Positions 3,233 to 9,599 of a DNA stretch of 9,599 bases are shown piece after piece. The stretch's first letter is position 1. Each line of letters starts with the position of its first letter. The DNA is from Candidatus Sumerlaeota bacterium (GTDB lineage: Bacteria > Sumerlaeota > Sumerlaeia > JAFGJS01), in assembly GCA_016928995.1 (NCBI GenBank), contig JAFGJS010000077.1:1-9599 (forward strand), given 5' to 3'. The translations under genes were made by a program, and so were the position numbers. A model generated the notes under the pieces. The model did not search any database. It was not told the DNA's origin and saw only the letters and a list, made by a program, of their open reading frames with translations.

Positions 3233-3243
3233 AGGACATGGAT

Positions 3244-4203
3244 ATGAGATTGTTGTTGATCGCTATTTTACTGTTCGTTGTCTCTTGTCACAGTGTTAAA
3301 GCGCCTGTTATTGAAATCTATCAATCAGCTTACTCACAGGAGGATATTAATAATTTAAAAGAACTGAAGGATGTTAATTATCAAGAGACGCCGATGGATG
3401 ACTATATCGCAGCGATCTTATGGTCGATTCTCAGTGCTGATGTATACAAAAATGAAGTTACAATCCGCAATATTGCGCCAGATTCATCATATGTTCAGGC
3501 GAGAATTCAAGAAGAAGATCCTCCGATGACAGAAGAGGAATATGAGTCGTTCAAGAAGGCGCAATCTACTCTTTACGAGTTGCTCATGGAATACCGCGAA
3601 TCTGGTAAGGATATTGATCATTTTGTCGCAGAGGTTTGGGAGCAACGTGGATCGGATCTACGTCAGCTGGTCGCTCCAGACAAAGAGTCGCTGCGGTCTC
3701 ATCTTTTATTGATCGACATCTCAGACGAACGCTTCGATATAGAATCATTTGGTTCAAAGCCGAATCAATTGCCAGAATCGCGAGAAGAATTTCTTAGCAT
3801 GGAAATAGACAACACGTGGTTTTACGAACTTACGTCTCAGATCGAACAAGTGAAAGATGCGATAGTGGGCGATCTGGAGTTGTCGCTCGAAGAAATAGCG
3901 CGCGGGAAACACTATTTTAAAACCGATAGAACATATCATGAAAATCGCGACTCCTTTGTCGAAGGAGGCTTGGAAGGTCTTTTACTTGAACTCAAAAGAG
4001 AGAATTTGCTTGATCGATGGATGATCGAGAAATTGGAGCAGGACGCTATATTTCATGATGAGACATTAAGAAGATCTTTTTCTGATTGGCAACGGAGGAA
4101 CCTTCCACGACATCATGAAGTCTTCGGACCTTTTATGATAGAAGATTCATCGAGAAATCCCGATGGATTCGCAAATAATCAATTTCAGGCAGTATTGAAA
4201 TGA
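3244..4203 (+). CDS. putative lipoprotein of unknown function, AT-rich
   Basis: I do not recognise this 319-residue protein. It begins MRLLLIAILLFVVSCHS: a short basic start, a hydrophobic core and a lipobox-like VVSC with Cys at residue 15, predicting lipid anchoring after signal peptidase II cleavage. The rest is acidic and mostly helical (for example MTEEEYESFKKAQSTLYELLMEY), with no transmembrane helix or catalytic motif that I can name. ATG 3244 is preferred because AAAGGA (3231-3236) sits seven bases upstream; the in-frame ATG at 3238 would lie one base from that site. It starts 11 bases after the glycosyltransferase stop and 44 bases before the ligase-like gene, so it is probably co-transcribed. 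Its base composition and A/T-ending codons differ strongly from both neighbours, suggesting later acquisition. Confidence 0.8.
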   Translation: MRLLLIAILLFVVSCHSVKAPVIEIYQSAYSQEDINNLKELKDVNYQETPMDDYIAAILWSILSADVYKNEVTIRNIAPDSSYVQARIQEEDPPMTEEEYESFKKAQSTLYELLMEYRESGKDIDHFVAEVWEQRGSDLRQLVAPDKESLRSHLLLIDISDERFDIESFGSKPNQLPESREEFLSMEIDNTWFYELTSQIEQVKDAIVGDLELSLEEIARGKHYFKTDRTYHENRDSFVEGGLEGLLLELKRENLLDRWMIEKLEQDAIFHDETLRRSFSDWQRRNLPRHHEVFGPFMIEDSSRNPDGFANNQFQAVLK

Positions 4204-6241: not shown

Positions 6242-6346
6242 CAAAGCGCCGTTTCTTCCCATCCATCTCATTCCCATTCTTCAGGGCTTTTTTTATCGTT
6301 AAGCTCCTGCTGCGGCGCATCAATTCAACGAAATGGAGATCGACAG

Positions 6347-8278
6347 ATGAGCAAAAAAGCTAAGAAAAACACTCTGGAATTCATTCGTAATGTCGTGCCG
6401 GATATGCCCGATTCCAGAGATTGGTTTTATGGGCCTACGCTCCAGGCCCTGCCCTATCCGGCGTTAACTCCGCCCGCCGCGTTGAAAATTTTGAATCAAG
6501 GCCAGGAAGGCTCATGCACTGGATTCGCGCTGGCTGCCGTGATCAATTATCTCATGGAACGCTCTCAACGGACCGGAGTGCGGGTCAGCGCGCGCATGCT
6601 TTACCGCCTCGCTCAGCTGCACGATGAATGGCCCGGCGAGGATTATGAAGGCTCCAGCATCAAAGGCGCGATTTTGGGATGGGCCAATATGGGCGTTTGC
6701 CAGGAAGATCTATGGCCCAGCGACGACAGACATAAAAATGAGGAACTGACGATCCAACGGGCGAAAGACGCGCGCCATCACACCATCGGGGCTTATTACC
6801 GGCTCGAACCAAAGATCGAGCATTTCCACGCCGCGCTCAGCGAAACCGGAGCGCTGTATGTCTCCGCTCAAACTCACGCTGGCTGGAACAGTCCAATGAA
6901 TGGCGTCATCGAGTTCAAATCCGGCTCCAGCGGCGGTCATGCCTTCGCCATCGTCGGCTATGATCAGGATGGCTTCATCATCCAAAATTCATGGGGAACC
7001 GGCTGGGGCAAAAAAGGATTGGCGCATTGGACCTACGCCGATTGGAACGAAAACCTGATGGACGCCTGGGTGATTCAATTGGCCTATCCCACGCCGGAGA
7101 TTTTCGGTCTGGAGCCCCGAGCGGCTCGCATCGCCGCCGGCAGGATCGAGCGCAAGACGCTCTTCGCTCCCAAGCGCATCCATATCGCAGGGCACTTCGT
7201 GCATGTCGACGACGGGAAATTTCATCAAACCGGCCGGTATTGGAGCAACGCGCAAGACACGCAGCAAACCGCCGGGCACGTGGCTCAATCAACGAAATAC
7301 AAACACCTTTTGCTTTACGCGCATGGCGGCTTGAACAGCCCCGAGGATTCCGCGCGCCGCATTCATGCAATGAAAGAAGTGTTCAAAGCCAATGGCATTT
7401 ATCCGTATCATTTGATGTACGACGTCGGACTTGGCGAGGAAATCATGGATCTGTTGATCCGCGAATTTAATCCTTTGAACGAACGCTCCAGTGGAATGCT
7501 GGATGATATTTTCGACTTGGGACGCAAAGCCGTCGATTTTGCCTCGGAGCGAAAAAGAAGACTGATCGAAACGTTGGACCAAAAGATCGAAGATCTCGTT
7601 CGCAAGCCGGTCACGCCGATTTGGGAGGAAATGAAACGCGGCGCCCGGAAGGCCTTTGATGACGACGGCGACGGCACGAGCACCTTGAAAATGTTTGTCG
7701 AAGCGTTCAGCCGCGCTCAAAAGGAAAAGGGAAAGGCGGGAATCACACAGGTTCATATGGCCGGACATAGCACCGGCGCCGTGGCGCTGGCGCATTTGCT
7801 GGCGATGACGCGGCGGTTAAACATCCAGTTTCCCGTCTCCACGCTCAGTCTGCTGGCTCCGGCCTGCACCTTCGATCTCTTTAGTGAAACCTATCTGCCC
7901 ATCCTGAAAGGCGCGGACGACGGCGCGAATATCGGCAAAATGATTGTCTATTGCCTCAACAAACAAGCGGAGCTGGATGACAACGTCGGGGAAATATACC
8001 GGAAATCCCTGCTGTATCTCGTTTCCAACGCCTTTGAGCGTGAAGCTGAAAAACCCCTGCTGGGTATGGAGAAATTCAAGCGCTTACGTCCGCGCACCCA
8101 ACGCAATCTGAAATTCATCGTCGCTGATCCCACGAGTCAATACTCCCGTAGCGAAAGCCACGACGGCTTTGACAATGACGAGCGAACGATGAATAATCTA
8201 TTGAAAAATATTCTCGGACACGCTCCGGACCGGCCTTTCACGAAGAAAGACTTGAACTATGGCAAGATTATCTTCTGA
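6347..8278 (+). CDS. fusion of papain-like (C1A) cysteine peptidase and serine alpha/beta-hydrolase
   Basis: This is a single 643-residue polypeptide with two enzyme-like parts. Residues 1-250 form a C1A peptidase. After the entry motif PDSRDWFY, NQGQEGSC gives oxyanion Gln51 and nucleophile Cys57, six residues apart as in papain. GGHAFAIVGYD gives His198, and QNSWGTGWGKKG gives Asn214, so the active site is complete. Residues 251-315 form a linker. Residues 318-643 look like an alpha/beta-hydrolase: LLLYAHGGLNS (HGG oxyanion-hole region, 321-331), MAGHSTGAVALAHLL with nucleophile Ser475, and a possible catalytic His605 in SESHDGF. A charged helical insert (about 376-465) separates the oxyanion strand from the nucleophile elbow. 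There is no signal peptide, propeptide or membrane helix, so it is probably cytosolic or exported by a non-classical route. ATG 6347 is supported by TGGAG at 6334-6338. Substrates are unknown. It is monocistronic. Confidence 0.88.
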   Translation: MSKKAKKNTLEFIRNVVPDMPDSRDWFYGPTLQALPYPALTPPAALKILNQGQEGSCTGFALAAVINYLMERSQRTGVRVSARMLYRLAQLHDEWPGEDYEGSSIKGAILGWANMGVCQEDLWPSDDRHKNEELTIQRAKDARHHTIGAYYRLEPKIEHFHAALSETGALYVSAQTHAGWNSPMNGVIEFKSGSSGGHAFAIVGYDQDGFIIQNSWGTGWGKKGLAHWTYADWNENLMDAWVIQLAYPTPEIFGLEPRAARIAAGRIERKTLFAPKRIHIAGHFVHVDDGKFHQTGRYWSNAQDTQQTAGHVAQSTKYKHLLLYAHGGLNSPEDSARRIHAMKEVFKANGIYPYHLMYDVGLGEEIMDLLIREFNPLNERSSGMLDDIFDLGRKAVDFASERKRRLIETLDQKIEDLVRKPVTPIWEEMKRGARKAFDDDGDGTSTLKMFVEAFSRAQKEKGKAGITQVHMAGHSTGAVALAHLLAMTRRLNIQFPVSTLSLLAPACTFDLFSETYLPILKGADDGANIGKMIVYCLNKQAELDDNVGEIYRKSLLYLVSNAFEREAEKPLLGMEKFKRLRPRTQRNLKFIVADPTSQYSRSESHDGFDNDERTMNNLLKNILGHAPDRPFTKKDLNYGKIIF

Positions 8279-8620: not shown

Positions 8621-8697
8621 GGGCGGGTAGCTCAGCTGGCTAGAGCATCGCCCTTACAAGGCGGGGGTCGCAGGTTCGATTCCTGTCCCGCCCACCA
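8621..8697 (+). tRNA. tRNA-Val (anticodon UAC)
   Basis: This is a full cloverleaf. The acceptor GGGCGGG (8621-8627) pairs perfectly with CCCGCCC (8687-8693). The D stem is GCTC/GAGC, and the anticodon stem TCGCC/GGCGG closes the loop CTTACAA with anticodon TAC at 8655-8657. A five-base variable loop follows, and the T stem GCAGG/CCTGT carries TTCGATT. The discriminator is A8694 and CCA is encoded (8695-8697). UAC reads GUA and GUG valine codons. Confidence 0.97.
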
Positions 8698-8755
8698 GAG
8701 CCATCACCCGCAGCAGCGCCTGGCGCCGAATGTCATCACCCGCATCCAACCACGC
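8698..8755 (+). repeat. tRNA spacer with an 11-base direct repeat
   Basis: The 58-base spacer between the two tRNAs contains CATCACCCGCA twice, at 8702-8712 and 8734-8744, 32 bases apart. There is no T-run, so both tRNAs are probably made as one precursor and separated by RNase processing. Confidence 0.5.
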
Positions 8756-8832
8756 GGGGGCGTAGTTCAGTTGGTTAGAACGCCTGCCTGTCACGCAGGA
8801 GGTCGCGAGTTCGAGTCTCGTCGCTCCCGCCA
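8756..8832 (+). tRNA. tRNA-Asp (anticodon GUC)
   Basis: The acceptor GGGGGCG (8756-8762) pairs with CGCTCCC (8822-8828) with one G-U. The D stem is GTTC/GAAC, and the anticodon stem CCTGC/GCAGG closes the loop CTGTCAC with anticodon GTC at 8790-8792. The T stem GCGAG/CTCGT carries TTCGAGT. The discriminator is G8829, as expected for Asp, and CCA is encoded (8830-8832). GUC reads both aspartate codons. Confidence 0.97.
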
Positions 8833-8950
8833 TTTTTATCACTGGTTTTATTAGACTTAAAATTTGACATCTAAGAGTGTGATTTTTCATTCTGGCCCGA
8901 TTCCGGCTCCATTCCGCCCTCATTGGCGGTAAAATTCCGGTAACATTTTG

Positions 8951-9042: not shown

Positions 9043-9360
9043 ATGTGGAACGAACCAACAGAAAGGCAATTGAGTGCTTTGCCGTCGCTGTATTCGACGG
9101 AGAATGTGCCGTTGGAAGAGAAAATTATTCATATGCATTTCTTCTTGGGCGGGTGTGATTGGTTCATGGCAGAATATGATCCAACCGACAGGCTGTTCTT
9201 TGGGTATGTGATTTTGAATGATGATTTGGAAAATGCCGAGTGGGGTTATACGAGTTTTGACGAGATGCGTTCGATTCGCACAAGGCACGGCCTGGAGATT
9301 GACCGCGATCTGCATTGGCATCCCAATCCTGTCTCTCAGATTCCACGGATTTGGATTTAA
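9043..9360 (+). CDS. DUF2958 family protein
   Basis: This 105-residue soluble protein matches the DUF2958 pattern throughout: LYSTENVPLEEKIIHMHFFLGG (residues 17-38), CDWFMAEYDP, LFFGYVILNDDLENAEWGY (51-69), FDEMRSI and EIDRDLHWHP (85-94). The family is small, often found on plasmids and integrative elements, and has no established biochemical function that I know of. The length is close to that expected for a single complete domain. ATG 9043 is the only reasonable start, but the preceding 20 bases are pyrimidine-rich (CCCTCTTCTCTTTTC) with no Shine-Dalgarno sequence, so initiation may be weak or leaderless. It lies between a tRNA pair and a truncated regulator on the opposite strand, which fits decayed mobile DNA. 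Confidence 0.85.
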   Translation: MWNEPTERQLSALPSLYSTENVPLEEKIIHMHFFLGGCDWFMAEYDPTDRLFFGYVILNDDLENAEWGYTSFDEMRSIRTRHGLEIDRDLHWHPNPVSQIPRIWI

Positions 9361-9374
9361 TCGACGGAATGAAG

Positions 9375-9520
9375 TCAGGATTTTCGTTTTTTCCTTTTTG
9401 ATCTATAGGCTTCTTCGGCTTCGATGATCCAATCTGCGAGTGAATATCCAAGCGCATTTGCTATTCGAACGCAGACTTCGAGTGTAGGTCGGCGTTCTCC
9501 TCGTTCGAGAAAACTATAAT
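9375..9520 (-). pseudogene. XRE-type helix-turn-helix regulator, 3' fragment cut by an insertion
   Basis: The minus strand reads NYSFLERGERRPTLEV followed by CVRIANALGYSLADWIIEAEEAY and a basic Lys/Arg tail, ending in TGA at 9375-9377. FLERGERxPTLEVxxRIAxALGxSLxxW is the classic second half of the HTH_3 (XRE/Cro-CI) DNA-binding domain. What should precede it, the RxxxGLSQExLA half, is absent. Upstream of 9520 the frame stays open but reads HLNGCPVFGD, unlike any XRE protein, and the DNA there looks like an insertion-sequence end. The protein would have been a small cytosolic repressor of the plasmid, phage or toxin-antitoxin type. In its present form it lacks part of the DNA-binding fold and its native promoter. 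Confidence 0.72.
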
Positions 9521-9599
9521 TGTCCCCAAAAACTGGACAGCCATTAAGGTGGATTTTTCTCCGGTTTTCGTTCGAAAATTCAGAGGAACGAAAAGGAGA
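9521..9599 (+). mobile_element. probable left end of an insertion sequence (partial)
   Basis: The sequence starting TGTCCCCAAAAACTGGACAG (9521-9540) begins with TG, has a short internal TGTCC/GGACA dyad, and coincides exactly with the loss of XRE homology on the minus strand. About 50 bases further on, the window ends in AAAAGGAGA (9591-9599), a strong ribosome binding site pointing right. A transposase gene starting just beyond the edge would place it at the distance expected inside an IS. The TG start and layout suggest an IS3-like element, but the transposase and opposite end are outside the window. Confidence 0.5.

What the first reader, a model, noticed from the sequence alone, without database searches (positions are those of the whole stretch)
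6347..8278. One polypeptide combining a complete papain-type active site with a GHSTG alpha/beta-hydrolase
The sequence shows Gln51, Cys57, His198 and Asn214 of a C1A peptidase, then HGG and GHSTG motifs with Ser475 and a candidate His605 of a serine hydrolase, in one uninterrupted frame without a signal peptide. Bacterial C1A enzymes of the PDxRD type are known, but I do not recall this fusion as a described system. A cytosolic dual hydrolase with its own transcription unit beside accessory DNA could be an effector, toxin or defence protein. A peptidase that processes or activates the attached esterase/lipase is another possibility. The function is inference.
Basis: partly seen in the sequence, partly recalled or inferred. 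Interest (0 to 1): 0.62.

Follow-up and report, generated by a model that had tools for sequence, protein, structure and literature searches.

The report
Papain protease fused to lipase-like hydrolase
The window encodes one bacterial protein that joins a papain-type protein-cutting enzyme to a lipase-like enzyme; the same fusion, with both active sites intact, is kept in scattered bacteria of many phyla and often sits beside or is joined to cell-wall-cutting enzymes, so it is probably a self-lysis or weapon enzyme of a kind not described as such in the papers I could search.

Summary
ORF 6347-8278 (643 aa) is an intact papain (C1A, xylellain-like) peptidase joined to an alpha/beta-hydrolase. 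The predicted fold of each half matches solved structures. It is no assembly artefact: 67 proteins in several phyla carry both halves intact. Gln/Cys/His/Asn of the peptidase is kept in 72 of 72 papain-bearing proteins. Ser475 and His605 are kept in 67 of 67 with an intact hydrolase, Asp545 in 66. The halves co-diverge (r = 0.92). The gene is sporadic, signal-less, single-copy here and plasmid-borne in rhizobia.

New here: homologues of the hydrolase half that lack papain stand next to, or fused to, a caspase (8 of 9). Peptidoglycan-degrading enzymes are repeatedly fused to or directly beside the module (GH108, GH19-like, N-acetylmuramidase, amidase, CHAP, phage lysozyme); none is among the commonest families of 139 distal control genes. 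Best reading: a peptidase-lipase effector pair of the caspase plus alpha/beta-hydrolase kind, with papain in place of caspase, probably working with a murein hydrolase to break the envelope. Anti-phage defence is possible but not shown: neighbours hold no general excess of defence genes. Substrates and proteolytic gating are inferred.

The parts
6335..6338 (+). GGAG ribosome-binding site, 8 nt before the ATG
   Evidence: sequence
6347..8278 (+). 643-aa papain / alpha-beta-hydrolase fusion protein
   Evidence: full-length homologues
6392..7087 (+). C1A (xylellain-type) peptidase domain, residues 16-247, opening with the conserved DxPDxRD motif
   Evidence: Pfam PF00112; 3ois Z 28.6 over model residues 5-247
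6497..6499 (+). Gln51, oxyanion hole of the peptidase
   Evidence: 72/72 conserved
6515..6517 (+). Cys57, peptidase nucleophile
   Evidence: 72/72 conserved
6938..6940 (+). His198, peptidase
   Evidence: 72/72 conserved
6986..6988 (+). Asn214, peptidase
   Evidence: 72/72 conserved
7088..7171 (+). linker, residues 248-275, low model confidence and variable
   Evidence: pLDDT about 40 at 250-271
7172..8221 (+). alpha/beta-hydrolase domain, residues 276-625
7322..7330 (+). HGG, residues 326-328, after the first long strand (probable oxyanion hole)
   Evidence: invariant in A1
7424..7732 (+). helical cap-like insertion, residues 360-462, between strand 351-359 and the nucleophile strand; holds a low-confidence loop near 377-398
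   Evidence: His326-Ser475 spacing 120-149 in papain fusions versus 257-296 in four papain-less forms
7763..7777 (+). GHSTG nucleophile elbow, Ser475
   Evidence: Ser kept in 67 of 72 papain-bearing proteins
7979..7981 (+). Asp545, candidate catalytic acid after strand 529-537
   Evidence: 66/67; position in topology
8159..8161 (+). His605, catalytic histidine after strand 588-593
   Evidence: 67/67
8621..8832 (+). tRNA-Val (8621-8697) and tRNA-Asp (8756-8832) downstream; context, not part of the unit

Best explanation
It is a peptidase-lipase effector pair on one chain. The N-terminal C1A peptidase and the C-terminal lipase-like alpha/beta-hydrolase both keep complete active sites (shown). 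They belong to a modular class in which this hydrolase is kept together with a cysteine peptidase, papain here and caspase elsewhere, often with a murein hydrolase fused or adjacent (shown). Inferred mechanism: the protein waits in the cytosol in a latent state. The peptidase may be held by its N-terminal segment, as I recall for xylellain, and the hydrolase by its helical cap. A trigger wakes the peptidase, which cuts in cis or in partner proteins and so licenses the hydrolase; the hydrolase attacks membrane (phospho)lipids, and partner murein hydrolases finish the lysis. The outcome would be altruistic death or killing in a conflict.
For: Both active sites conserved; halves co-inherited, mirror-tree r 0.917, n 66; lipases, phospholipases and acyltransferases among the best fold matches of the second half. 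Papain-less homologues of the hydrolase have a caspase gene directly downstream (L068, L069, L070, L143, L152, L153, L154) or fused (L057). In R. gallicum two papain fusions and one hydrolase, caspase, trypsin-NucA run lie within about 20 kb. Murein hydrolases fused (L128 N-acetylmuramidase, L057 amidase, L125 endolysin-like) or adjacent (GH108 x4, GH19-like, CHAP, Amidase_2, phage lysozyme), none in the top 25 families of the control; those inspected have no clear signal peptide. Sporadic: 1 of 39 own-class genomes with the full-length protein, about 2% of Alpha- and 6% of Gammaproteobacteria sampled. Precedent: caspase always with a neighbouring alpha/beta-hydrolase in VMAP systems (PMC7159879); protease-activated pronucleases including caspase-nuclease (PMC12799240).
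Against: No NTPase sensor, EAD domain or other trigger gene is seen in the window; most close homologues stand alone without a recurrent partner. Neighbours show no general excess of known defence genes. Proteolytic gating, lipid substrate and lethality are untested. In five divergent proteins the hydrolase triad is lost while papain stays intact, so the peptidase can work without the lipase. The window locus itself has no murein hydrolase or caspase beside it, though its contig ends 1.3 kb downstream.
Confidence: 0.5

Rival explanations
1. Metabolic or scavenging dual hydrolase: a cytosolic or released enzyme that digests protein and lipid debris, with no role in conflict.
For: Stand-alone gene with no recurrent neighbour in most close relatives; both activities are degradative.
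Against: Sporadic, and on plasmids in rhizobia; no secretion signal; caspase-partnered and murein-hydrolase-linked relatives.
Confidence: 0.17
2. Exported antibacterial toxin (type VI or other secretion), attacking the envelope of competitors from the periplasm.
For: Lipase and murein-hydrolase effectors are typical type VI cargo (own knowledge); a Tle1-like fragment lies in the S. meliloti cluster.
Against: TssC/VipB is absent from the window's genome (92% complete) and found in only 8 of 36 host genomes; Pfam finds no PAAR or VgrG domain in the protein; no recurrent small immunity gene next door.
Confidence: 0.15
3. Phage-related lysis or maturation protein: a phage-type C1A peptidase with lysis enzymes next door.
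For: The papain half matches a PHROG peptidase (8e-18) and the neighbours match endolysins; one near full-length homologue lies in a viral-collection contig (L055).
Against: No listed phage record covers more than about a third of the protein; only 2 viral contigs found; no recurrent phage structural gene among the neighbours listed.
Confidence: 0.08
4. Sequencing-induced or chance fusion of two adjacent genes.
For: None found.
Against: 67 full-length fusions with both active sites intact, in several phyla, with co-diverging halves.
Confidence: 0.01

Closest known systems
Xylellain and bacterial short C1A peptidases (MEROPS C1A; PDB 3ois)
   Same: Fold (Z 28.6), catalytic tetrad; the window protein opens with a conserved DxPDxRD segment
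   Different: Xylellain is a stand-alone peptidase; here a 350-residue alpha/beta-hydrolase follows. The text of a 2023 survey of the papain family does not contain the word hydrolase.
Caspase plus alpha/beta-hydrolase pairs of VMAP/MoxR-vWA conflict systems (Kaur et al. 2020, PMC7159879)
   Same: A cysteine peptidase kept together with an alpha/beta-hydrolase; relatives of this hydrolase lie next to caspases in rhizobia
   Different: Papain instead of caspase, both on one chain, no NTPase-vWA-VMAP core seen; homology to the hydrolases of that paper was not tested directly
Multiple peptidases coupled to NucA endonuclease ('System 3', PMC7159879)
   Same: In R. gallicum the hydrolase-caspase pair precedes a trypsin-NucA protein; the paper mentions lysozyme- and papain-like peptidoglycan peptidase effectors
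   Different: The window gene has no nuclease, trypsin or EAD1 beside it
Protease-activated pronuclease pairs and canu caspase-nuclease loci (PMC12799240)
   Same: Peptidase linked to a second hydrolytic enzyme; here too a variable insertion lies before the active site of the second enzyme
   Different: Second enzyme is lipase-like, not an MBL nuclease; activation not shown here
A. fulgidus lipase, LCAT, NirD/DDHD, Legionella PlaB
   Same: alpha/beta-hydrolase fold with Ser-Asp-His order
   Different: Large helical insertion before the nucleophile strand; aligned residues only 8-20% identical

Membership tests
Papain family C1A, xylellain type | Gln-Cys-His-Asn catalytic residues | tested here: met
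   72/72
Papain family C1A, xylellain type | papain fold | tested here: met
   3ois Z 28.6, 241 residues aligned
Papain family C1A, xylellain type | N-terminal segment blocking the active site | tested here: inconclusive
   conserved DxPDxRD segment present, residues 1-9 of low confidence; coordinates not available to measure occlusion
alpha/beta-hydrolase superfamily | alpha/beta-hydrolase core with GxSxG elbow and Ser-Asp-His order | tested here: met
Lipase or phospholipase | activity on lipids | not testable with these tools
   structural resemblance only
VMAP-type caspase/hydrolase pair (PMC7159879) | peptidase of the caspase superfamily | tested here: not met
   papain instead in the window
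VMAP-type caspase/hydrolase pair (PMC7159879) | MoxR, vWA and VMAP core genes nearby | tested here: not met
   none among the window genes scanned; the contig ends at 9599
VMAP-type caspase/hydrolase pair (PMC7159879) | same hydrolase family | tested here: inconclusive
   homologous to caspase-adjacent hydrolases in rhizobial plasmids; the paper's own sequences were not compared
Type VI secretion effector | type VI apparatus in the genome | tested here: not met
   no VipB in G000, 92% complete
Canu / protease-pronuclease systems | MBL-fold nuclease partner | tested here: not met
   partner is an alpha/beta-hydrolase
Known anti-phage systems in PADLOC-DB | match to a model | tested here: not met
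   no match up to E 1

The most novel reading that the evidence does not exclude
The protein is a self-contained, papain-gated lipase that kills or lyses its own cell: the bacterial cell-death pattern 'cysteine peptidase licenses a destructive enzyme', here with papain in place of caspase, a lipase in place of the gasdermin or nuclease, and phage-type murein hydrolases as the finishing step, the lipase letting signal-less endolysins through the membrane.
Probability: 0.22. Interest if true: 0.8.

Novelty: new variant of a known kind. Interest (0 to 1): 0.56.

Why it matters
Peptidase-effector coupling has been shown for caspases and trypsins with nucleases. This family suggests that papain-type peptidases and lipase-like hydrolases form the same kind of unit. 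The two enzymes are on one chain, so coupling can be tested with two point mutants. The repeated joining to murein hydrolases gives a concrete hypothesis for how envelope breakdown could be assembled from three catalytic activities.

Tried and rejected
Assembly artefact: rejected. Recurrent operon partner: none in the close relatives; signals appeared only in wider sets. Type VI cargo: disfavoured. Phage origin: phage matches cover only the papain half. General defence-island enrichment: PADLOC hits near and far look alike apart from caspase. The PDB fold search with the whole chain was filled by papain matches, so the second half was folded alone; no listed entry shows the two domains together, which excludes nothing. 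Promoter and terminator scans gave no more than shuffles. Literature searches found no description of this fusion; the library is open-access only.

Full report
The observation. Window 6347-8278 (+) is one open frame of 643 codons preceded by GGAG 8 nt before the ATG. Residues 47-227 match Pfam Peptidase_C1 at 2e-12, and the nearest solved sequence is xylellain from Xylella, 3ois, at 3e-17 over 16-244. The second half has no Pfam or NCBIfam family above cut-off. The protein is single copy in its genome.

Not an artefact. One scan of 84,980 species genomes found 43 loci with relatives; most cover residues 13-638 at 41-52% identity in the best segment. An alignment of 37 proteins (the others 45-54% identical to the window protein) keeps Gln51, Cys57, His198, Asn214, Ser475, Asp545 and His605 invariant. 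Profile searches with the hydrolase half in about 990 further genomes and in plasmids added more divergent members. Over the combined set of 72 papain-containing proteins the peptidase tetrad is intact in every one. In the 67 with an intact serine, His605 is kept in all and Asp545 in 66. Pairwise distances of the two halves correlate at r = 0.917 for 66 proteins, permutation p = 0.0005, so the fusion has been inherited as a unit. Three of the 43 loci have broken frames (L026, L037, L040).

Structure. With the 37-row alignment AlphaFold gives pLDDT 80.8, pTM 0.58 for the whole chain. The first 247 residues align to xylellain with Z 28.6, 241 residues. Folded alone, residues 273-643 reach pLDDT 83.7, pTM 0.86. 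VIA-align then lists almost only alpha/beta-hydrolases: A. fulgidus lipase Z 12.1, LCAT 11.5, NirD/DDHD 10.8, human monoacylglycerol lipase 10.6, Legionella PlaB 10.5. Foldseek's best hit is the same lipase at E 1.4e-3, so the fold is clear but the family is divergent. Ser475 follows strand 468-474, Asp545 follows strand 529-537 and His605 follows strand 588-593, the canonical order. A helical insertion (360-462) with a low-confidence loop near 377-398 lies before the nucleophile strand and looks like a cap.

Distribution. The gene is sporadic. Of the 39 genomes of the window's own class searched, only the window genome has the full-length protein; 6 of 289 in the class of the Insolitispirillum locus (Alphaproteobacteria), 18 of 321 in the class of the Sedimenticola locus (Gammaproteobacteria), 7 of 247 in the phylum of the Desulfopila locus and 3 of 132 in another phylum have the hydrolase. 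Pseudomonadota, Thermodesulfobacteriota, Myxococcota, Verrucomicrobiota and Nitrospinota rows are mixed in the tree, with starred branches that split the first three (not proof of transfer). Several members lie on rhizobial plasmids, some conjugative.

Modularity. The hydrolase occurs in other company. In Kovacikia it lies between an N-terminal Amidase_2 and a C-terminal caspase domain. In Mesorhizobium, Rhizobium, Ensifer, Sinorhizobium and one genome of the Desulfopila-locus phylum it is a separate gene with a caspase-type gene directly downstream (L068, L069, L070, L143, L152, L153, L154). Of nine papain-less hydrolases, eight have a caspase; L139 has none that I identified. In four papain-less forms (three caspase-adjacent, and L139) the spacing from HGG to the catalytic serine is 257-296 residues instead of 120-149, an extra insertion of about 130 residues in the cap position. 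In R. gallicum two papain fusions and a run of hydrolase, caspase and a trypsin-NucA protein lie within about 20 kb. Conversely five divergent papain proteins have lost the hydrolase triad; three of them have gained an N-terminal trypsin-like domain (L058, L059, L066) and one has a caspase gene next to it (L065).

Murein hydrolases. N-acetylmuramidase (PF11860, 2.5e-61) is fused to the N-terminus in L128; an endolysin-like domain (PHROG 7, 6e-6) in L125. GH108 muramidase genes lie directly downstream on the same strand in L007, L023, L030 and L150; others are GH19-like in L021, CHAP in L060 and L065, Amidase_2 in L064 and phage lysozyme in the S. meliloti hydrolase-caspase-pYEATS cluster L154. 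Among 139 nearest genes Pfam counts 6 PG_binding_3, 4 GH108, 4 PG_binding_1, 3 CHAP and 5 caspases; none of these is among the 25 commonest families of 139 distal genes from the same loci. The lists show only 25 families, so single control hits could be hidden. Three of the four GH108 loci belong to one clade, so the events are fewer than the loci. These enzymes and the fusion lack an obvious signal peptide (a hydropathy scan, not a trained predictor; the L154 lysozyme is the most hydrophobic at its N-terminus).

Interpretation. Shown: one chain, two conserved active sites, long co-inheritance, exchange of papain for caspase beside the same hydrolase family, and repeated joining to murein hydrolases. 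Inferred: that the hydrolase acts on lipids, that the peptidase licenses it, and that the result is lysis or death. The precedents are the caspase and neighbouring alpha/beta-hydrolase pairs of VMAP systems (PMC7159879) and the proven protease-activated pronucleases, including caspase-nuclease loci (PMC12799240). In the first of these papers lysozyme- and papain-like effectors are already mentioned for EAD1-linked proteins, so the general idea is known. The fused papain-hydrolase family was not found described in the papers searched. The anti-phage role is not supported by neighbourhood statistics, and a type VI route is disfavoured.

Verdict. The function remains inference; I file it as a new variant of the peptidase-effector pairs.

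Noticed in passing
L061:189-2099 (-), R. leguminosarum pRle248d: A caspase domain joined to a GDSL-lipase-like domain in one protein, a few genes from the papain-hydrolase fusion: a second, unrelated lipase paired with a cysteine peptidase.
   Followed up: no
L058, L059, L066: Trypsin-like domain fused in front of the papain domain with a degenerate hydrolase half, each beside a divergent giant gene of about 7 kb whose sequence is related in all three.
   Followed up: partly
L127:4816-6714, L067:3908-5788, L064 and L072: Animal-type haem peroxidase genes beside or near the fusion in several Alphaproteobacteria.
   Followed up: no
L152 (R. gallicum plasmid, 38 kb): Dense cluster of three hydrolase paralogues, two caspase-type proteins and a trypsin-NucA nuclease protein.
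   Followed up: partly
L029:9840-11054: A protein with a weak TIR match starts about 20 nt after the fusion gene in Insolitispirillum peregrinum.
   Followed up: no
window 3238-4203 (+): 321-aa protein with a lipoprotein-like N-terminus, no Pfam family over cut-off, in a 41-44% G+C stretch between 62-66% G+C genes.
   Followed up: no
window 9043-9360 (+) and 9384-9599 (-): DUF2958 gene after the tRNAs and, on the other strand at the contig end, a frame resembling an XRE-type helix-turn-helix protein by eye.
   Followed up: no
window 8654-8923 (-): The ORF with 'RLELATSCVTGRRSNQLNYAP' overlaps the two tRNA genes and is probably spurious.
   Followed up: yes
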